Positions 1,646-61,417 of a stretch of 64,000 nucleotides of DNA are shown here, piece by piece. The notes under the pieces were generated by a model, which searched no databases, had not been told where the DNA came from, and was given only the letters and a program-made list of their open reading frames with translations. The stretch spans positions 2,170,001-2,234,000 of the forward strand of contig NZ_CP113917.1 of NCBI RefSeq assembly GCF_029395475.1. The letters run 5' to 3'. Position numbers and translations under genes: made by a program. Source of the stretch: Bifidobacterium sp. ESL0775 (lineage in GTDB: Bacteria; Actinomycetota; Actinomycetes; Actinomycetales; Bifidobacteriaceae). How positions within the stretch are numbered: the first letter of the stretch is position 1; every line of letters begins with the position of its first letter.

Positions 1646-2182
1646 CCGAAAAACCTCCCTTGTTTCTCTTTCATTGCCACCCACCAAATTACCCAGCTTG
1701 TTTGACTAGAAACAAAGTGTCCTACGGCACTCTGTGATATCGCTATTACACGGTAATAACTTATAATTTTCCAGCCTTTGCTGAATGCCGCGGAAATTTG
1801 GATCATAAGATAAAAAAGACCAGACCGTTATCAATTGGGGAATGATTTGCCATTACCATCTCGTCATTTATCACATTCAAGCTCAATATGTCATAACATG
1901 CGACACGCCGTAGCATTCGGTTTTGGAAGGCATTCCCGCGCTCATCCTCACGCCACGTCAAAGATTCCACTAATTTCGTCAAAGCGTTCGCATTACCGAG
2001 TTGCAAACCTTCTAAACAGTTCCATCAAACCATGGCGCGACACTGTTTTCACTCGCCTGTGAAGGGTTGTTTTTGTACCGCAAACCCTATAAGGTGTGGA
2101 TTCATCGGAACGGCGGAACCGTATTACGACAATGTATTACATCGCGGCTTCCGATTTTGAAGAAAAAAGGTTGGTGTTTGCC
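1646..2182. other. Divergent intergenic region, GH172 / LRR protein 1
   Basis: A 537-nt gene-free stretch. The left part holds the GH172 promoter region and the TATTAC palindrome. From about 1862 onward it is homologous to the upstream region of LRR protein 2 (from about 43285). No credible ORF is seen. Confidence 0.7.
1744..1758. promoter_or_regulatory. Operator-like palindrome TATTAC-ACG-GTAATA
   Basis: Perfect 6-3-6 inverted repeat about 100 nt upstream of the GH172 start, in an AT-rich stretch. It is a candidate site for a sugar regulator controlling GH172. Confidence 0.4.
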
Positions 2183-2243
2183 ATGGGTGTTATCCGCGCG
2201 TTGGTCTCGGTGCTGGTTTGTATTGCAACGATGTCAACGCTAA
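1862..2243 (+). repeat. Conserved 5' flank and leader, LRR copy 1
   Basis: About 380 nt clearly homologous to 43285-43667 upstream of the second LRR gene. It includes the shared GGTGTGGATTCATCGGAACG block and the leader codons from the ATG at 2183. Conservation is patchy at first and becomes near-identical across the leader. Confidence 0.8.
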
Positions 2244-5200
2244 CCCCCCCCGCAATTCTGATCTAAACGAAACTTTCCCATCACTTCCGGACACCACCCA
2301 ATCCTCATCCTCACTTTCACCCCACCGCACTTCCCAATCTTCTTCTTTTTCTGAACCTTCCGGTCCTACACTTCTTTCCAGACCATCCCGGCCCACACGC
2401 TCTTCCAGGTCTTCCGCATCCCCCAAGGCAACGTCGCGTCACAGCTCCCCTGCTTCTTCCACAGTCCACTCAGTATCCCACATCGTCGAAGGCCGGAGCC
2501 GAACCTCTTCCGCGGAGCCATCGTCGCCGTTGACGCGCGGGGAGCCGTCCGTGGATCCGCAAGGCTCATGCACCGCGCAGGCCGGCACATGGAACACCGC
2601 CAACTGGACATTTAGCACAGGCTGCACGCTGACTATCGACGGCGGTGCCAGCGGTGACACGGGCAGTGTGACCAGCGCCACCGCGTTCGGCAATTACCGC
2701 AACGCCGGCACGGTCGCCCATGACGCCACCGACATCCTCATTAAAGGCAGCCTCACCATAAGGACCAGCAACGCGTTCAACTGGCCGTCCCTCATCCAGT
2801 TCAGGATGGGTCGGAACGCACAGCTCATCCTCACCGGCAACGCAGGGTACTACATGTTCGCCGAAGCACGCCTGCTCGTCTCGGTGGACACGTCCGGCTG
2901 GGACCTCAGCCACGTTTCGGATATACAAGGCATGTTCTACGGCTGCAACAGCCTGGCCAGCCTCAGCCTGCCCAACCTCCACCTCGCCGACAACGCCAAC
3001 CTCAACGGCATGCTCGGTAACTGCTCGAGCCTCGCCAGACTGGACATCCACGGCTGGCACGTCGGCAACATCATCGGCTTCCCAAAAGCATTCGACACCA
3101 CCAACCTCCCCTACCCCCCCGTCCGTCACTTCACCAATGGTTTCCTGCATGACGTCACCAATCTGAAGTCGATCGACGCGTCCGGCATGACCATCGACAA
3201 CAGCAGCGCTCCGGACTATGGAACCACGGTGTCCCGATGGATCGAGGCATTCCACGACGCGCCCGGCCTGCAGGAGCTGAACCTCGCCAACCTGACCGTC
3301 ACCGGCAGAACAGTCACCGATTTGGACGGCAAAATCTACGACCCAGTCAGGACCTACACATACGTGACCAGCGTCCTGTCGAGCTGGCCGTCGCTCCAGA
3401 GCCTGGACGTGACCGGCTGGGACGTCACCCAACTCAACCTGACCAACCTGTTCCTCAACGACCCGAACCTCACCGCAATCATCGGCCTGAAAGACTGGGA
3501 CACCTCGAATGCCACCAGCATGTGGAGCATGTTCTCCGGGGACGCGAGCCTGGCGAGCGTGGACGTCAGTCATTTCGACACCCGCAAAGTTGCCAATTTC
3601 GGCAAAATGTTCTACGGCTGCCACAAGCTGGTGGGCATCGACGTCACCGGCTTCAACACCAGCCAGGCCACCAACATGTCGGTGATGTTCTACGACTGCC
3701 CGAAGCTCACCGTGCTCGACCCCTCCGGCTTCGACATGCACGGGATCCAGGACATCTCCGGCATGTTCCAAGGCGACACGAACCTCAAGGAACTGGACCT
3801 GAGCGGGTGGGACCTGCGCAACGTCACCAACCATGCGGGCGCGCTCCCCAGCGGCCTGCGAATGCTCGCCCTCGGGGCCAACACCCGCCTCTACAACGCG
3901 CAAGGAACCCCGGCCGGCAACCCCTTCGCCAGCGTCAACCAGAACATCAACTGGGTGCAGATGCAAAGCTTCCAACCCGGAGCCCCCGAGGTCGGCCCGA
4001 TTGGCAACACGGCCGCCCTAACCACGCGCGCCGCCTCCGCGAATCCCGCCGGCTTTTACACGGACAGCACCTATGTGGGCGCGACCCTGGTCGCCGACGC
4101 CAACGGCGGGGCCGGCTCCTACTACACGGACATCGACACCACCAGCGCGGGCGCGGCCCTCACCGCGCCGGCCGCCACCGTGCTCACCGGCCACCGGGCG
4201 GGCAGCGTGTTCACTGGGTGGAACACCGACCGCTACGGGCGCGGCACCCCCTATCGGCCCGGCCAGCAGATCGCCAGCCTCACACGGGGCGAGTACTTCC
4301 CCCACCAGACCATCACCCTCTACGCCCAATGGCGTGACATCAACCCGCCCGGCGGCCTCACCGCCACCTACCACCACACCGGCGACACCATACAGGTAAG
4401 CGGCACGCTCGGCCATGACGACCCCGTCACCGCCTGCCTCAACCCCACCACCTGCCAGACCGCCACCACGGCCGGCGGCACATGGACGGTCAGCTTCCCC
4501 GCCAGCACGTTCACCGGCGCGTACCCGGTGGGCGCGCAGTACTCGGTGGCCGCCAGCAGCTCGGCCACCGACCCCATCACCCACACCACCGTCACCAGCC
4601 CCGAAGCCAAACTCACCGGCACCCTGCCATGGACCACCGTCACCCTCGCCAAAGACGGCGCCAGCACACCCACCGGCACCGTACCCGACATCGACCCCGT
4701 CTACACCGACACCGGCGACGGCAAGGCGTACGTCAGCCTGCCCAGGCTCGCCGCGACGGGCGGCATCAGCGTGGCCGGCGGCTACCTCACCGGATGGAAC
4801 CACTTGGCCAGCCAGTCCACACCGGAGTTCGCCACGCCAGGGGCGACCACCATACCCGCCACGGACGGCACCACCGACAGCAACGGACACACTTCGGTCA
4901 CCCTGCACCCCGTCTGGAACATCCTCAACGCGCCCACCGGCACCGGCCAGCGCTCGCCCGCGGACAACGGCGTCAGGTTCACCGCCACGGGCAAGCCATG
5001 GACCAACAGAGACACCATCACCCTCTGCGTCAAACCACACACCCAAGCCGCCTACACCGACTGCACCGCACCCAAGACCACAAGCGACTGGGACGGTATC
5101 AGCGACTACACCATCAACCACGACTACACCAAGGAACAACTGCCCCAAGGCGGCGACTACGACATCAAAACCACGCTCACCACGCTCGGCGCCACCGACA

Positions 5201-5424
5201 TTTGGCGAGGCGACGGCACCACCCAGACCGGAGCGATCACCAAGACCAGTACAACAACCACCCGCATCAGCGGCATCTACCTCAGCAGCCTGCCACTGAC
5301 CGGCGGCCAGCCCCAACGGCTCGTCACATTCCTCGCCGCCGGGCTCGCCCTGGCGCTCCTCCTGCTCGCCGCCGCGGACCGGCTGCGCCACCAACGCCAA
5401 GCCAACGCCCGCCACAGCAGATAA
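2183..5424 (+). CDS. Phase-variable LPXTG-anchored BspA-type LRR surface protein, copy 1 (out of frame here)
   Basis: ATG 2183 begins a leader with a basic start and a hydrophobic run (ALVSVLVCIATMSTLT), consistent with a signal peptide. Here that frame stops at TAA 2264 because the C tract 2244-2251 has 8 C. The main ORF (open from an unlikely TTG at 2218) is one frame away; 9 or 6 C would fuse them into about 1080 residues. The order is a Ser/Thr/Pro-rich stalk (roughly residues 15-95 of the main ORF), many DUF285/BspA repeats (MFxxCxxLxxLDLSxWDTS style, about 180-590), a Listeria-Bacteroides/InlB B-type repeat (about 640-735), Thr-rich Ig-like modules, LPLTG at about 1025, a membrane span and a basic tail. 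These features predict a sortase-anchored adhesin-like surface protein. Its paralogue lies at 43607-47063. Confidence 0.85.
2244..2251 (+). repeat. Poly-C tract, 8 C (phase-variation switch)
   Basis: Eight consecutive C between the leader and the long LRR ORF. Frame arithmetic gives OFF at 8, ON at 9 or 6. The homologous tract of copy 2 has 7 C. Confidence 0.8.
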
Positions 5425-5650
5425 GACAACCCGCATGGCCCAATCTCAAAATCACGCCACACACAACCAAGCGGAGACATGTTATAAAACCAAGCCAGAC
5501 CAACGGCCGATGACACTGACCAGCCAGACGTCCCAAACAACAACCAGAGGCAAACAAGACCCAAGGCTAGTGACACCGGCCGGCCACATGGTATGGGACG
5601 CCGGATCGCAAAACCGCAGCCCAACGTCCCGCATCCATGAATAATCAAAA

Positions 5651-5760
5651 GACTTCCCGCCAAGCCAACCAACACCCCGGCCCGGCGGGAACCCAACCGG
5701 GTGCCGGCACGGCAACCAACAACCCAAACCAACCACCGCGCCGACACCCACCCCAACCCT
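5651..5760. repeat. 110-bp 3' flank repeat, LRR copy 1
   Basis: Identical over 110 bases, as I read it, to 47104-47213 downstream of LRR copy 2. It is GC-rich with short CCGG/GGGT inverted segments that could act as a terminator. No ORF is supported. Confidence 0.9.
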
Positions 5761-5904
5761 CAGCAAGCACTCCACCAACTCAACGTTGTTTATTGGTGCG
5801 GCAGAAAGGCATCAATAAACAGCAACATTCCTTTATTTTCTAAAGAGCAAAACCTCACAGAAATTCTCGATTCGTGTTCCAATCAAAAATCTGTTATATT
5901 AAAA

Positions 5905-6206: not shown

Positions 6207-7685
6207 TCACGCCTTGGGCTGCGGGCCTGGTTCCATGAACCAGATCCAAGCCGGGACTTGGTGAATGACTTGCTGACCACGGCGATAATCTTTGAGGCCG
6301 CCGTCAAGCACGATGAGCGTGGCCTCGTGCATGTCCTGTTCATCGAGCATTTCCCAGATGGCCCGCAATTCACGCTGGGCCGTTTGCTCATCATCCATCG
6401 AAACCGTGACCTGATAAAGCTCGTACGTCTCGCGGCTCAGCGCATCGCCGACGACGAAATCGACCTCATACCCATGTTTTTGCGTGCGATACGACGAAAT
6501 GCCATCGCGCCGTAAACCGATGTTCCGGCGTCGCAATTCAAGGTAGACGGACTGTTCAAGCCGCTGGCCGACATCGCTCACGCTCGCACGCGAATAGGCG
6601 AGCGCCAGCCCAGGATCGATGGCATAGATCTTGGGGATTGAAGTGGTGTTGACGCTCAGAGACACCGAGAACTCCCTCAAAGCGAACAACAGATAGGCTT
6701 CTTCGCAATACCTCAGCACGTCGCTCAATAGCGCCCGGCTCGAATCCAGACCGGCGCTGCGCAAATCATTCTCTATTTTGCGCAGGGAAACGCTTCTGCC
6801 GTTCGAGCCAAGCACCCTTCTGGCGAAGGCCACCACCACTTGGGGGCGGCTGATGTCGTGGCGTTCCACGACGTCCCTGGCCACCACGCGCTGCACATAA
6901 CTTTGCAACAAGGCGATGGCCTGTGGCGCGGGAAGGCTTTGCGCGGCAGGGAAACCTCCCCGATCGAGGTATTCGCTGAAAGCACGGCGCAAGCGAATTT
7001 GCTCTTCCGTGGAATAGTGGCTGGCGATGGCCTCGAATCGGGAAAACGAGCCAATCCCCTTGGCGCCAGTTTCACCAACTTCACCAACTTCCGTCACTCT
7101 TTTTCTGTCAGAAGTATTGTCCGCTTTGATGGTCTTGCGCGCAGCACCCTTCAGGGTGCCATGTGCACGGACAAACTCATGGAAAGAATAAGGCAACAAC
7201 TCGAAATCCAGCGCGCGCCCACGAAACTCGGTCGACACCTCACTCGAGAGCATCTTCGACGACGAGCCGCTGACATAAATGGTCGCCTTCGTCGTGTCCA
7301 CCACGCGGCGCAGCCACTTGCCCCAGCCGGCCATTTCCTGCAGCTCATCAAGAAACAGATACACTCCCCCATCCTGCGCTTGCGGGTGCAGCAGGAAGAA
7401 GGTCTCCAAGACCTCGTCGCCTGTGGATGCGGTGACGTGGCCAAGTCGATCGTCCTCGAAGTTGAAATAACAGACACGATCCGGCGCGACACCTGAGTCA
7501 AGCAACCGATCCATTTCCTGGAAAAGGCGAAAACTCTTGCCACTGCGCCTCATGCCGATGACGACTTTGACCAGATTGCCCACCTTGGGAGCAAGCGGCT
7601 CACCCAGGTCAAGGTCCCTCGGGACGATGGGACGAAAATCATCCAACGAGAAATCCTGTATCTTCTGCGCAATAACCGTGTTCAT
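6207..7685 (-). CDS. AAA-family ATPase with DUF4143 C-terminal domain
   Basis: About 492 residues. The N-terminal AAA domain has Walker A GMRRSGKS (around residue 45), Walker B VYLFLDELQ (around 110-120) and a sensor-like IYVSGSSSKML. The C-terminal half carries the DUF4143 domain with a nuclease-like EVDFVV stretch near residue 400. Such proteins are common, poorly understood ATPases, some of them mobile or toxin-like; a function should not be assigned. Two consecutive ATGs start the ORF (7688 and 7685). The second is chosen because GGAGG then has 4 nt rather than 1 nt spacing. The gene is monocistronic and its upstream region carries an unusual phased operator array. Confidence 0.85.
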   Translation of the reverse strand: MNTVIAQKIQDFSLDDFRPIVPRDLDLGEPLAPKVGNLVKVVIGMRRSGKSFRLFQEMDRLLDSGVAPDRVCYFNFEDDRLGHVTASTGDEVLETFFLLHPQAQDGGVYLFLDELQEMAGWGKWLRRVVDTTKATIYVSGSSSKMLSSEVSTEFRGRALDFELLPYSFHEFVRAHGTLKGAARKTIKADNTSDRKRVTEVGEVGETGAKGIGSFSRFEAIASHYSTEEQIRLRRAFSEYLDRGGFPAAQSLPAPQAIALLQSYVQRVVARDVVERHDISRPQVVVAFARRVLGSNGRSVSLRKIENDLRSAGLDSSRALLSDVLRYCEEAYLLFALREFSVSLSVNTTSIPKIYAIDPGLALAYSRASVSDVGQRLEQSVYLELRRRNIGLRRDGISSYRTQKHGYEVDFVVGDALSRETYELYQVTVSMDDEQTAQRELRAIWEMLDEQDMHEATLIVLDGGLKDYRRGQQVIHQVPAWIWFMEPGPQPKA

Positions 7686-8096
7686 CATTCCTCCAACTGG
7701 TAAAGTAATCTTACCAGTTTTTCAAATATTGGCAATGTTACTTTACCAGTTTGCCGATAATTGGTAACTTTACTTTGCCAATTTTCGTTTAACTGGTCAC
7801 GTAACCTTACCAGTTTGGGGAATTGGCGACTTTACTTTGACAGCCCAGCTCGGATTTGTGCAGATTCATCAGGGGGTCAGGCAGTTGGCAGACAATCGTA
7901 AGGTGGTTGCTGGTAAAGTGGCAAGTTGGGCAAATGAGATGTTGCTTACGTGCGGAACCCGCTATGGCGTCATTACTTCATAACGCTGGAGGCATGGGAC
8001 GTGCGGCAGAGACTTGAGCACTTTCGGCCAATGACCGCAACGATTTGACCCAACGAATTTACACTTGCAATGGCATAGGACTACAGACGGGACATC
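7686..8096. other. Divergent region between the ATPase and dedA
   Basis: A 411-nt region. The left 160 nt are the operator array. The remainder, up to the DedA start, shows no ORF or clear promoter that I can support. Confidence 0.6.
7695..7845. promoter_or_regulatory. Operator array: 25-bp palindromic units with 32-bp period
   Basis: Four units start at 7695, 7727, 7759 and 7791, exactly 32 bp apart. The best ones read AACTGGTAA-N7-TTACCAGTT (7695-7719) and AACTGGT-N11-ACCAGTT (7791-7815). A fifth degenerate copy begins at 7821, and an isolated GCTGGTAAAGT half-site lies near 7909. The array starts 10 nt upstream of the ATPase ATG, so autoregulation or co-operative repressor binding is likely. 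Confidence 0.7.
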
Positions 8097-43284: not shown

Positions 43285-43667
43285 CGTCATTTATTACATC
43301 CAAACTCAATATGTTACAAAATGCGACACGCCGTAGCACTCGGTTTTGGGACGCATTTCAGACGGTCGTCTCTTTCAACATCAAAACTTCCACGAACCTT
43401 GTCAAAAGAGTTGGCATTGTTGGGTTGCAAACCTTTTAAGCTTATCCACCATATTGTCGCGTGACGCGGTTTCCACGCGACCGTGGACGGTTGTTTTTGT
43501 ACCGGAAAGCCGTTAAGGTGTGGATTCATCGGAACGGCGGAACCGTATACGATAATGTATTACACCGCCGGAATTCGATTTAGTCCTAAAAAGGTCGGTG
43601 TTCAATATGGGTGTCATCCGCACGTTGGTCTCGGTGCTGGTTTGTATTGCAACGATGTCAACGCTAA
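43285..43667 (+). repeat. Conserved 5' flank and leader, LRR copy 2
   Basis: Homologue of 1862-2243. It contains the same GGTGTGGATTCATCGG block and the ATG leader at 43607. Confidence 0.8.
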
Positions 43668-46600
43668 CCCCCCCGCAATTCTGATCTAAACGAAACTTTC
43701 CCATCACTTCCGGATACCACCCAATCCCAATCCTCATCCTCGCCCCACGATATTTCCCGATCATCTTTTCCTTCTGAGCTTTCTGATTCCGCACGTCTTT
43801 CCAACCCATCGCGGCCCGTACACTCTTCCAAGTCCCCCGAATCCCATGAAGCAGAACTGCTTCATGGCTACTCCGTTTCTCCTACTATTCGCTCCGTCTC
43901 GCATATTGTCGAGGGCCGGGCCCCATCTTCTTCCACCTCGTCGTTGATGCGTGGCGAGCCGGCCGTGGGCCCACAGTCCAGTTGCTCTACACGGCACGGC
44001 ACATGGAACACAGCCACCTGGGACTTCGACGCGGACTGCGTGCTGGCCATCCACGGCGGTGACACCGGCTCCACCCCGAGCACCACGCCCTTCGGCTCCG
44101 GCTCGACTGCCGGCACGATCGCCAACACCGCGGCCAGCGTGACCATCGACGGCAGTGTGATCATCAGCACCGGCAACGCGTTCGCCGGCTGGACCTCTCT
44201 GCAACTTTTCACCATGGGCAACGGCGCGAGCCTCACCCTCAGCGGCCAAGGCGCCTATCGCCTCTTCGCCAGCGACACCGCCCTGGCCACCGTGGACACG
44301 ACCGGCTGGGACACCAGCCAAGCCACCACCATGTACAGCATGTTCTATCAATGCCGGACCCTCTTCAACCTCAACCTGTCTGGCTTCGATACCGCTCGAG
44401 CAGCCACCATGCAATACATGCTCGGCGGCTGCGCCCAACTGACAAGCCTGGACCTGTCCGGCTGGAACCTCACCGGCCTCAACGCCACCACCAACATGGA
44501 CAACATATTCGACGGTGACACAGGTCTCACCACGATCGACGCACACGGCTGGCACGTCAACAACACCGTCGCCACCGCCCTTGCCGATTCCACGAGCGGC
44601 ACCAGCAAGTTCGCCGACGCAACTAACCTAAAGACACTGAACGTTTCTGATTGGATTCTCACTGGCGCCACTAAGACCACCTATTTGTTCGCCCATTGCG
44701 CACATTTGACCGACATAAATGTGTCCGGCTGGACTGGCATGAGCAATGTCGCCGCAATGAACGGTACATTCGCTTCCAATACCAAACTCACAGCCATTAC
44801 CGGCCTACCCGACTGGGATAGCAGCCACGTCACCGATATGCGAGAGATGTTTGCGAACGACCGGAATTTGATGGAACTCGATCTGTCCGGCTGGGACGTT
44901 AGCCATATTGACATCAACGGCATGTCTAAAATATTCTTTTTAAACACCTCCTTGCCCGTCATTAACACGTCGCGCTGGCGCATCGGAAACACCAGCGTTG
45001 CGCTGGATATCGCGTTCAAGCAAGGTCCATCCACAATTATCGTAAATGATTGGGATCTGTCCGCCACTACCAGTCTGTCCGGCTTGTTCAAGGACTGCAC
45101 GAATCTGACCGGTATCATCGGCATGGGCACCTGGGACACTAGCACCATCACCAACATGAGCAACATGTTCTACAAATGTGGCAAGCTCGCCAGCGCCGAC
45201 GTTTCCCACTTCGACACCAGCCACGTGTCCACCATCGACTACATGTTCTACAACTGCTCGAGCCTGGTGGTCCTCGACGTCACCGGCTGGCGCACCCCAC
45301 AACTCACCAGCATGATCGGCGCGTTCCACGGCTGCGCCAAGCTCACCGTGTTCGACCCGTCCCGCTTCGACACCAGCCACATCACCGGCTTCAATAGCCT
45401 GTTCACGGACGATGCGGGTCTGAAGCTGCTGGACCTGCGTGGCTGGGACACCAGCGCCGGCACCGGCGCCTGGGGCGTGTTCGACGGCATGCTTCCCAGC
45501 GGCCTGCGCATGCTCGCCCTCGGGCCCAACACCAGGCTCAAGGACAGCGCCTATGGCAAGCCCTTCGACAGCGTCAACCAGAACATCAACTGGATGCAGA
45601 TGCAAAGCTTCGACGCGGGCGCCGCGCCGACGGGCTGGACCGGACGCACGCCCGCCCTGGACGCCAAGGCCAACACCAACCCCGCCGGCTTCTACGTCGA
45701 CAGCACGTACGTGGGCGCGACCTTGGTCGTCGACGCCAACGGCGGGGCCGGCTCCTACTACACGGACACCGACACCACCACCGCGGGCGCGGCCATCGAC
45801 GCGCCAGCAGCCACCGTGCTCAACGGCCACCGGCCCCACGCCGTGTTCGACGGGTGGAACACCAAACGCGACGGCACCGGCCACGCCTACCAGCCCGGCC
45901 AGAGGATCGCCAGCCTGGCCAGGGGCGAGTACTTCCCCCACCAGACCATCATCCTCTACGCCCAATGGCGCGCCGTCAACGCGCCCGGCAGCCTCACCAC
46001 CACCTACCACCACACCGGCGACAAGGTGCGAGTCGCCGGCACCGTCGGCCACGCCGGCACCGTCCAGGCCTGCCTCGCCCCCGGCCAATGCCAGACGACA
46101 CAGACCACGGGCGGCGCGTGGACGATCGACCTCGCCGCCGCCACGTTCACCGCCGCCTACCCCATGGGCGCGCAGTACACGCTCACCACCAGCATCACCG
46201 ACAGCGTCGCCGACGCGGTCACCGGCCAACCCGTCACCAGCCCCGAGACCAAACTCACCGGCACCCTGCCATGGACAAGCGTCACCCTCACCAAAGACGG
46301 CGCGGACACACCCGTCGGCACCGTGCCCACCGTCGCCCCCGTGTACACCGACACCAGCGACAACAAGGCGTATGCCAGCCTGCCCAGGCTCGCCGCTTCC
46401 GGCGGCATCAGCGTGGCCGGCGGCTACCTCACCGGATGGAACCACCAAGCCAGCCAGCCCACACCGGAATACGCCACACCTGGGGCGACCACGATACCCA
46501 CCACGGACGGCACCACCGACGGCAACGGACACACCACCGTCACCCTGCACCCCGTATGGAACATCCTCAACGCCCCCACCGGCACCGGCCAGCGCTCACC

Positions 46601-47063
46601 CACCGGCAACGGCGTCAGGTTCACCGCCACCGGCAAGCCATGGACCAACACCGACACCATCACCCTGTGCGTCAAACCACACACCCAACCCGCCTACACC
46701 GACTGCACCACACCAACCACCACCAGCGGCTGGACCAACGGCGACTACACCATCAACAAGGACTACACCCGAACACAAATGCCCCAAGGCGGCCAATACG
46801 ACATCAAGACCACCCTGACCACACCCGGCACCACCGACACCTGGCGCGGCGACGGCACCACCCCAACCGGGCCTCTCACCAAAACCAACGAGACGACAGT
46901 ACGCATCAGCAACACCTACCAGGGCAGCCTGCCCCTCACCGGCGGGCGGCCGCAACGGCTCGCCGCGCTCCTCGCCGCCGGACTCGCCCTGGCGCTCCTA
47001 CTGCTCGCCGCCGCGGATTGGCTGCGCCACCAACGCCAGGCCAATGCCCGCCACAGCAAGTGA
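43607..47063 (+). CDS. Phase-variable LPXTG-anchored BspA-type LRR surface protein, copy 2 (out of frame here)
   Basis: The leader from ATG 43607 (MGVIRTLVSVLVCIATMSTLTPP) stops at TGA 43682 because the tract 43668-43674 has 7 C. The long frame is open from just after a TAA at 43665 through to 47063. With 6 or 9 C it would give about 1150 residues. The order is a Ser-rich stalk, about 15 DUF285/BspA repeats (MFYxCxxLxxLDVTGW), an InlB-type repeat (FDGWNTKRDGTGHAY... LYAQWR), Thr-rich Ig-like modules, LPLTGG, a membrane span and a basic tail. The C-terminal third is very close to copy 1, while the repeat region has diverged. TTG 43944 is not a credible start. Confidence 0.85.
43668..43674 (+). 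repeat. Poly-C tract, 7 C (phase-variation switch)
   Basis: At the same leader position as the 8-C tract of copy 1. Frame arithmetic gives OFF at 7, ON at 6 or 9. Confidence 0.8.
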
Positions 47064-59872: not shown

Positions 59873-61417
59873 ATGAAGACACGAAACGTAATAGCCACTG
59901 TGGCCGCCTCTCTGGCCGCTCTCGCCCTTGCCATAGTGCCGCAAACCGCGATGGCCGGCGAGCATCAGCCATTATTAGACACCGAGCAGATGCCAACCGC
60001 CCAGGTCTACTGTGACGCGAGCAAACGCTCATTCGGCACCGACGCCTACTGGCAGTTGAGTTCGGACTGCTCGCAACTGCATCTTGGAAGCAGATACGAA
60101 GGGCGTATCGGCACCTTGCCCAACACGCGCCCGTGGTATTCCGTGAGATACTCGATCAAACAGGTAACGGTGGATACGCCGCTCAAAGCCCATGCCGACT
60201 CGACCAAGATGTTCTTCGACATGCCCTATCTGACCAGCATCGACCTCACCGGTTTAGACACCAGCGATGCGACCAACATGAATCAGATGTTCTATAAGAA
60301 CCCGTCACTTGGCAGCATCGTTCTTGGCGATCAATTCGACACCAGCAACGTCACCGACATGAGCTATATGTTCGCTTCGGACTCCACACTCCAGAATCTT
60401 GATTTGGGGCAAAAATTCAACACCTCGAACGTCACGAACATGAACCACATGTTCGGAGGAATGAAAAGCTTGGCATCAATCAACATGGGTCCCTCGTTCA
60501 CAACGGGCAACGCGTTCACGATGGCCTCCATGTTCCAAGGCGACTCCGCATTGAAACGACTCGACCTTTCCGGCTTCGATACAGGCAAAATCACCAGCGA
60601 CGACAGAATAGACAATATGTTTGAAGGGTGCACCAATCTGCGCTTCGTCCGAGTCGGAGCCAACGCGGCATTCAGAAGCGCGGCCAACACGCCTTCCGCA
60701 AACTGGAAAAGCCAGGACGGTAATTGGACAGGTGATCCAGCCCTTGGTTTCGGGCAGGATTCGCCCAGCACCACTTGGTACGGCAAGGCTGGGGTTTCCG
60801 TGAGTTTCAGCGCCAATGGGGCGCAGGGCAACGTCCCTGCGACGATGACACGCGACGCTTGGCCGGGCACCTCCGCAGAATTCGAGATGCCGGGCCAGGG
60901 TGAAATGACCAAGGAAAACCATACCTGGGCGGGTTGGGCACACGACGAGGGCGCCAACGAACCGCATTATCTCGCCGGTTCCATACTCTCCCTGGACGAT
61001 GATGACGACTCCAACAACGACACGACGATGCACGCGATCTGGCAACGTACAGGCGGTGAGAATGGGACCACCGAACCTGGCGAAGGCGGGACGGAGCCGG
61101 GCGAGGGAGAAACCGAAGGTGGCGAAGGCGAAACCGACACGGATGAGGACGCACTTGAACCGGAGGATGAGGAATTGGAACCGATCGTCGCCGAGGGACT
61201 ACGGCCCGGAACCCCTGGTCTGCCCGCATCCGCGGTCTTTCTGCAAGAGCGCGGGGCAACAGCCGCTGCTGGCCAGCAACAAGCGGAAGACGCGCAGCGA
61301 CAAGGCGACTTGGCTCGCACTGGCTCGTCTGCTCTGAACCTAGCCATCGTCGCGGCCACTATGGCTCTTGCCGGCTTGGCTATATTCCTGCGTCGATCCT
61401 CAATTCGCATCAAATGA
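59873..61417 (+). CDS. BspA-type LRR surface protein with LARTG sorting signal
   Basis: 514 residues. Signal peptide MKTRNVIATVAASLAALALA ending AMA before Gly-Glu. DUF285/BspA repeats span about 100-260 (MFYKNPSLGSIVL, MFASDSTLQNLDL, MFGGMKSLASINM, MFQGDSALKRLDLSGFDTG). An InlB-like domain follows, then a Gly/Glu/Thr-rich acidic spacer (about 390-440), LARTG (about 482), a membrane span and RRSSIRIK tail. Sortase anchoring via an LAXTG variant is likely. ATG 59873 has AGGAAAA upstream. No homopolymer tract is present, unlike the two larger paralogues. Confidence 0.88.
   Translation: MKTRNVIATVAASLAALALAIVPQTAMAGEHQPLLDTEQMPTAQVYCDASKRSFGTDAYWQLSSDCSQLHLGSRYEGRIGTLPNTRPWYSVRYSIKQVTVDTPLKAHADSTKMFFDMPYLTSIDLTGLDTSDATNMNQMFYKNPSLGSIVLGDQFDTSNVTDMSYMFASDSTLQNLDLGQKFNTSNVTNMNHMFGGMKSLASINMGPSFTTGNAFTMASMFQGDSALKRLDLSGFDTGKITSDDRIDNMFEGCTNLRFVRVGANAAFRSAANTPSANWKSQDGNWTGDPALGFGQDSPSTTWYGKAGVSVSFSANGAQGNVPATMTRDAWPGTSAEFEMPGQGEMTKENHTWAGWAHDEGANEPHYLAGSILSLDDDDDSNNDTTMHAIWQRTGGENGTTEPGEGGTEPGEGETEGGEGETDTDEDALEPEDEELEPIVAEGLRPGTPGLPASAVFLQERGATAAAGQQQAEDAQRQGDLARTGSSALNLAIVAATMALAGLAIFLRRSSIRIK

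What the first reader, a model, noticed from the sequence alone, without database searches (positions are those of the whole stretch)
2183..2266. C-tract phase-variation switch joins or cuts the signal peptide of LRR surface protein 1
The leader ORF (ATG 2183) and the 3.2-kb LPXTG ORF are in different frames, separated by 8 C at 2244-2251. Counting frames, 8 C ends the leader at TAA 2264, while 9 or 6 C gives one 1080-residue secreted and anchored protein. The long ORF itself has no start with a signal sequence. Homopolymer-tract switching, or slippage during transcription, is known for bifidobacterial pili; I do not know it for BspA-type LRR proteins.
Basis: partly seen in the sequence, partly recalled or inferred. 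Interest (0 to 1): 0.85.

Follow-up and report, generated by a model that had tools for sequence, protein, structure and literature searches.

The report
Family-wide on/off switch for surface proteins
A run of identical DNA letters sits exactly between the export signal and the rest of a large surface protein in a Bifidobacterium, and the same slippery run recurs in a whole family of such proteins, so that copying slips could switch each one on or off.

Summary
The leader (ATG 2183) and the 1068-codon BspA/PARCEL-type LPXTG ORF lie in different frames around 8 C at 2244-2251, and the long ORF has no secreted start of its own.

One C8 in 64 kb is not unusual. But this gene is one of 14 paralogues here with a 7-9 C run at the identical place. 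The genome has 14 runs of 8 or more C: 12 at these junctions, 2 with no open frame of 150 codons across them. All 14 leaders are out of frame.

With relatives from four other Bifidobacterium genomes there are 30 tract genes: 27 OFF, 3 fused ON. In 30 of 30, both wrong frames meet a stop within 36 nt after the tract, against 3% of body positions and 1 of 41 tract-free signal-peptide-like ORFs. A palindrome upstream of 10 of the 14 occurs nowhere else in the genome.

Best reading: replication-slippage phase variation of a surface-protein family. The same architecture is shown for B. breve pili (PMC9187656), so this is a new variant of a known kind. Within-population variation could not be tested; assembly length error and RNA-level slippage remain rivals.

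The parts
2129..2145 (.). near-palindrome ACAATGTATTACATCGC (consensus GCGATGTAWTACATCGC), 37 nt before the leader ATG; candidate operator
   Evidence: 10 places with at most 2 mismatches in the whole genome, all 10 upstream of tract-bearing paralogues (10 of 14); reversed-pattern control 0
2163..2170 (+). purine-rich stretch AAAAAAGG before the leader ATG, possible weak ribosome-binding site
   Evidence: AAGG before the start codon is present in all 14 upstream stretches printed; function inferred, not tested
2183..2243 (+). leader: MGVIRALVSVLVCIATMSTL, signal-peptide-like (best 12-residue Kyte-Doolittle mean 2.7)
   Evidence: the leader frame is the most hydrophobic of the three frames in all 24 distinct leaders listed
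2244..2251 (+). C8 tract (slippage site)
2259..2261 (+). TGA in one wrong frame (stop trap 1)
2264..2266 (+). TAA that ends the leader in the present state (stop trap 2)
2218..5424 (+). long ORF: Ser/Thr/Pro-rich N-terminus, BspA/PARCEL (DUF285) repeats, LPLTGG and membrane tail
   Evidence: PF03382 108 bits, cut-off 25; TIGR02167 116 bits, cut-off 30
3397..3705 (+). best DUF285 stretch of the body
5290..5307 (+). LPLTGG sortase motif followed by hydrophobic segment and basic tail
43607..43667 (+). leader of the second window paralogue (MGVIRTLVSVLVCIATMSTL)
   Evidence: genome 2213668 = window 43668
43668..43674 (+). C7 tract of the second window paralogue, other wrong frame
43675..47063 (+). 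body ORF of the second paralogue (DUF285, LPLTGG)

Best explanation
Each tract is a simple-sequence contingency locus. DNA-polymerase slippage changes the number of C at the border between signal peptide and mature protein. In one of three length classes the leader runs on into the LPXTG body and the protein is exported and anchored. In the other two, translation stops within about a dozen codons after the tract. With 14 such loci, one clone can make many combinations of LRR surface proteins. In the assembled sequence all 14 are OFF. Shown: anatomy, recurrence, frame states, ON and OFF examples, stop traps, length differences between sister genes. Inferred: the slippage itself, export, anchoring, function in adhesion or evasion, and regulation by the palindrome.
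For: 14 of 14 tract paralogues in this genome have the run at the same place with the leader out of frame. 12 of the genome's 14 C8+ runs are at these junctions. Sister genes with identical 15-nt flanks differ by one C: C8 at 2172244 and C7 at 2213668; C8 at 858198 and C7 at 1131056. Three tract genes of a relative (G086, C8, C8, C11) have the leader fused to the body. Tract-free paralogues have leader and body fused, one of them (160699) with the same mature start (V/AGHQNP) as C9 genes. In 30 of 30 tract genes both wrong frames stop within 36 nt, against 820 of 27280 body positions and 1 of 41 tract-free ORFs. 13 of 14 bodies here are unbroken, and dN/dS is 0.49-0.63 in the 7 paralogue pairs compared. 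The same leader/LPXTG split by a G-tract is an experimentally supported switch in B. breve, mostly OFF in vitro.
Against: Frame classes are not random: 24 of 30 share one wrong class, 3 the other, 3 ON. Tract lengths agree in 5 of the 6 G085/G089 gene pairs that I matched by position and flank, and the sixth differs by 3. Free slippage would scatter them more, although duplication makes the genes non-independent. Of the three ON genes, only L069 was seen to run to LPLTGG; L064 meets a stop without the motif and L150 runs off the fetched piece. Outside junctions, G085 and G089 have other long C runs too: 7 of 13 and 5 of 10 C8+ runs. No reads, no second strain of the species and no transcript or protein data were available.
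Confidence: 0.74

Rival explanations
1. Programmed slippage at RNA level: RNA polymerase or the ribosome slips on the C run, so a fixed wrong frame still yields a small constant share of exported protein.
For: 24 of 27 OFF genes share one offset. A C10 and a C7 version in matched genes of two genomes keep that offset. Runs of 8-10 are long enough for RNA polymerase slippage (recalled).
Against: Stops are set in both wrong frames, which a single fixed offset does not need. Three tract genes are ON and three have the other offset. Sister genes differ by one base.
Confidence: 0.13
2. Assembly error: tracts are called one base short, and most genes are really ON.
For: The deviation is one-sided within genomes. 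G086, whose bodies contain several frame breaks, shows that such assemblies can be indel-rich or their genes decayed.
Against: In 434 kb of this genome 637 of 651 conserved G085 frames are unbroken. The two C7 runs found inside bodies are in frame. Genes that are always ON give no reason for stop traps in both wrong frames. The ESL stingless-bee genomes sequenced with Nanopore were polished with Illumina reads (PMC10128065, passages), but I could not show that this genome is among them.
Confidence: 0.08
3. Permanently silent genes or a reservoir of silent cassettes for recombination into an expressed copy.
For: All 14 are OFF here. Leader DNA is 80-96% alike in the 6 other paralogues hit, while body stretches are mostly 30-72% alike. 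One body (2007274) is broken, not at a homopolymer.
Against: 13 of 14 bodies are intact. dN/dS is below 1 in 10 of 11 pairs compared. Fused versions exist in G086.
Confidence: 0.05

Closest known systems
G-tract ON/OFF switch of sortase-dependent pili, B. breve UCC2003 bbr_0113 and bbr_1889 (PMC9187656)
   Same: Same genus; Sec-signal ORF and LPXTG ORF split by a homopolymer of the same base pair; mostly OFF in vitro; no usable start in the second ORF.
   Different: There mostly one or two tract-bearing pilus clusters per genome (its Table 1), G on the coding strand, followed by pilus genes and a sortase. Here 14 LRR genes in one genome, C on the coding strand, runs of 7-11 across genomes, a shared private palindrome and stop traps (not examined for B. 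breve).
BspA-like surface proteins of Ca. Mycoplasma girerdii with variable dinucleotide repeats (PMC5476646)
   Same: A large BspA-like family (at least 28 copies); eight members with length-variable repeats; wild-type state OFF for a number of genes.
   Different: Dinucleotide repeats, unrelated bacterium.
PARCEL/DUF285 lipoproteins of Mycoplasma agalactiae with poly-A or poly-G tracts (PMC2824730, PMC2996958)
   Same: Same repeat family (DUF285); homopolymer length differences or an N-terminal poly-G tract proposed to cause frameshifts.
   Different: Lipoproteins of a wall-less bacterium; no sortase anchor. PMC2824730 itself calls phase variation of its DUF285 family as a whole unlikely.
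Homopolymer tracts at surface-protein genes of Gardnerella (PMC11287997)
   Same: Same bacterial family (recalled); long homopolymers, partly at proteins with LPXTG motifs; length variation shown by Sanger sequencing for one tract.
   Different: About 70% of G/C tracts lie upstream of genes; no leader/body architecture described in the passages that I read.

Membership tests
Simple-sequence contingency locus (slipped-strand phase variation) | Homopolymer inside a coding region, its length deciding the frame of an intact downstream ORF | tested here: met
Simple-sequence contingency locus (slipped-strand phase variation) | Length differs among homologous loci, with ON and OFF states | tested here: met
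   C7/C8 with identical flanks; 3 ON, 27 OFF of 30
Simple-sequence contingency locus (slipped-strand phase variation) | Reversible length change within one clone | not testable with these tools
   no reads, no second strain
Bifidobacterial tract-switched pilus cluster | Signal ORF and LPXTG ORF split by a G/C homopolymer | tested here: met
Bifidobacterial tract-switched pilus cluster | First gene of a pilin operon with its own sortase downstream | tested here: not met
   this locus only: the next long ORF, 6207-7688, is on the other strand and is an AAA_14/DUF4143 ATPase; body is DUF285 repeats. No sortase search was run and the other 13 loci were not checked
BspA/PARCEL (DUF285) surface proteins | PF03382 / TIGR02167 repeats above curated cut-off | tested here: met
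   (the two window paralogues)
BspA/PARCEL (DUF285) surface proteins | Export and surface location | not testable with these tools
   LPLTGG and hydrophobic tail by sequence only
Programmed frameshift or transcriptional slippage gene | One conserved offset between the two ORFs | tested here: inconclusive
   24 of 30 share it, 6 do not
Programmed frameshift or transcriptional slippage gene | RNA or protein product of the slip at fixed DNA length | not testable with these tools
   no expression data

The most novel reading that the evidence does not exclude
A genome-wide stochastic coat switch in a gut symbiont: 14 LRR surface proteins, each behind its own C-tract with stop traps in both wrong frames and most behind one private operator. 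The operator would set when the family is transcribed while the tracts set which members are displayed. The bias to one offset would add a low, RNA-slippage-made basal level from OFF genes.
Probability: 0.3. Interest if true: 0.78.

Novelty: new variant of a known kind. Interest (0 to 1): 0.62.

Why it matters
Tract switching is established in bifidobacteria for mostly one or two pilus loci per genome. Here it appears to govern a surface-protein repertoire of a size seen in phase-variable mycoplasmas, in what is probably a bee symbiont (inferred). That makes combinatorial surface variation in a commensal directly countable from reads. The paired stop traps give a sequence signature that could separate real frame switches from assembly errors and be searched for elsewhere. 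Six predicted proteins of this family start inside the body, so their export signal is hidden in databases (P0001-P0006).

Tried and rejected
The scan of genome contigs found only two distant relatives. The two protein searches showed no second strain of this species or of ESL0690/ESL0769 (90% clusters, capped candidates), so strain-level tract lengths could not be compared. G086 was looked at for genes with C6 runs, but several of its bodies have other frame breaks, so its C6 genes are left out of the count of 30. Codon-position bias of the leaders is weak (8, 8 and 12 variable columns at positions 1, 2 and 3). Two RNA folds of leader regions are no better than shuffles, and no sigma-70-like site was found on the + strand of 1700-5800. 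An origin of the stop traps from amino-acid content was checked by synonymous resampling: 0.02 to 0.38 per junction peptide, 26 distinct peptides that I group by eye into about 11 families, so single genes are not significant and only the recurrence is. Some of the 41 control ORFs are not LRR genes, and their signal end was placed by rule. dN/dS used 4 matched G085/G089 gene pairs (0.46-0.86, and one pair at 1.5-1.7; one filtered value rests on 68 codons) and 7 of the 21 possible pairs among seven genes here. A weak LRR match at window 60185-60865 was not analysed. Ecoli, plasmid and phage collections and structure prediction were not used.

Full report
What is there. The window lies in a 2,255,024-base single-contig genome. 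The genus is Bifidobacterium by its relatives: genomes G085, G086, G088 and G089, given as the same genus, have the contig lengths of Bifidobacterium sp. ESL0690, ESL0682, ESL0790 and ESL0769. At 2183 an ATG opens a 20-codon leader with a strongly hydrophobic core. Eight C follow at 2244-2251, and in the present frame translation ends at TAA 2264-2266. Another frame is open from 2161 to 5424 and carries DUF285/PARCEL repeats and LPLTGG with a membrane tail. A C8 run alone is not unusual (2.6 expected per 64 kb).

It is a family. The long ORF finds 52 matching stretches in its own genome. Fourteen genes carry a run of C followed by GCA at the leader/body border: C8 at 2172244 (this gene), 2007274, 1623748, 858198, 356553 and 544977; C7 at 2213668 (window 43668) and 1131056; C9 at 241897, 167125, 173479, 181694, 189107 and 197486. 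In all 14 the leader is out of frame with the body: 12 in one wrong class, the two C7 genes in the other. Tract-free members (two in L018, one at 160699) have leader and body fused. Sister genes with identical flanks differ by one C. Thirteen of the 14 bodies are unbroken; 2007274 is not.

Genome-wide placement. The genome has 14 runs of eight or more C on either strand. Twelve are at these junctions; the other two, 391254 and 1004022, have no open frame of 150 codons across them. The window has four C/G runs of six or more, two of them the family's tracts. Scaling the shuffle to the genome would give about 90 runs of eight (my extrapolation), so long C runs are otherwise rare here.

Relatives. 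A DNA search with this gene's leader found nothing outside its own genome among 112 genus genomes. With a C9 leader, short weaker matches appeared in five other genomes, four of which (G025, G085, G086, G089) carry the tract genes below. The body has relatives in 21 of 61 genus genomes searched, its own included. I fetched gene regions from 11 of the 20 others: G012, G013, G025, G085, G086, G087, G088, G089, G090, G091 and G093. Tracts of C7 or more at this border were found in four of them: six genes in G085 (C10), six in G089 (five C10, one C7), three in G086 (C8, C8, C11) and one in G025 (C11). The three in G086 are in frame with the leader. One of these (L069) runs to LPLTGG; one (L064) meets a stop without the motif and one (L150) runs off the fetched piece. 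Together with this genome that is 30 genes: 3 ON, 24 in one wrong class, 3 in the other. Coverage of the relatives is not exhaustive. In the regions fetched from the other seven genomes no C run of 7 or more stood before a long frame, many LRR ORFs printed there begin with a fused signal-like N-terminus, and one G088 region has a G9 run before a long frame.

Stop traps. Right after the tract both wrong frames hit a stop within 36 nt in 30 of 30 genes, the ON genes included. In the bodies this holds for 820 of 27280 codon positions (3.0%) and for 67 of 2523 in the early part of the bodies. In 41 tract-free signal-peptide-like ORFs of the same and related genomes it holds once. Synonymous recoding of the same peptides gives both stops in 2-38% of samples per peptide. 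The 30 genes are not independent: 26 distinct peptides, which I group by eye into about 11 families. Even so the pattern points to selection for clean termination in either wrong frame. That fits DNA length variation through all three classes better than one fixed programmed offset or genes that are always ON.

Shared palindrome. GCGATGTAWTACATCGC with at most two mismatches occurs at 10 places in the genome, all 10 upstream of tract genes (10 of 14), with none elsewhere and none for the reversed control. In this gene it ends 37 nt before the ATG. It looks like an operator private to the family. Schlafen/AlbA_2-HATPase-HTH and other ATPase genes lie next to four members and are candidates only.

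Is it an assembly artefact? The one-sided offset would fit runs called one base short. Against this, 637 of 651 conserved G085 frames are unbroken in 434 kb of this genome, and 662 of 682 in the reverse test (several of the exceptions look like rRNA-region or antisense ORFs, not tested). The two C7 runs found inside bodies are in frame, and the stop traps would be pointless in genes that are always ON. The ESL stingless-bee genomes of PMC10128065 sequenced with Nanopore were polished with Illumina reads (passages). Three of the four strain numbers above were searched and found only in another paper, so the origin of this genome and its bee host are inferred.

Comparison with the literature. 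PMC9187656 (Results parts 1 and 3 of 3, Discussion and one Methods section read) shows for B. breve that a G-tract splits a Sec-signal ORF from an LPXTG pilin ORF, that cultures are mostly OFF, and that ON lengths are enriched in mice. Its Table 1 lists mostly one or two tract-bearing pilus clusters per genome. 'Leucine' and 'BspA' do not occur in its main text. BspA-like proteins with frameshifting dinucleotide repeats are on record in Ca. M. girerdii (PMC5476646, passages). DUF285 lipoproteins of M. agalactiae have poly-A or poly-G tracts (PMC2824730, PMC2996958, passages), though PMC2824730 calls phase variation of that family unlikely. Gardnerella has many tracts at surface genes (PMC11287997, passages). 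I found no report of tract switching of LRR proteins in bifidobacteria in searches; only open-licence papers are held.

Verdict. A known mechanism in a new place and on a new scale, with a stop-trap signature that I did not find described (one narrow search). The step from anatomy to live switching is inference.

Noticed in passing
G012, L153, L154, L157: This genus member has 207 overlapping C8 matches, a far larger stock of C8-C11 runs than the window's genome; the 12 looked at have no long open frame across them on the C strand.
   Followed up: partly
L138, L139, L140 (G085) and L145, L146, L147 (G089): A repeated element with a C10 run (C11 in one copy) before GCGAT occurs three times in each of two related genomes, with no long frame on the C strand.
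   Followed up: no
G000:C1:2008006-2008027 (L010): The body of paralogue 2007274 is broken by a change at a short repeat (ACCAACATGTACGG / ACCAACATTACAG), not at a homopolymer.
   Followed up: partly
L020:16561-18243, L016:6160-7716, L020:1027-2523, window 6207-7688: Schlafen/AlbA_2-HATPase-HTH, ATPase_2/DUF234 and AAA_14/DUF4143 genes sit beside four tract genes; possible regulators of the palindrome.
   Followed up: partly
L073 and L078 (G085 1395916, G089 1284098): This matched gene pair has dN/dS of 1.5-1.7, unlike the other pairs; possible diversifying selection.
   Followed up: no
L156, run at G025:C4:300878: A C13 run with no long frame on the C strand in G025.
   Followed up: no
L061, L067, L068 (G086): Leader/body frames are also out of register around C6 runs in ESL0682, and several bodies there have further frame breaks: poor assembly or decay.
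   Followed up: partly
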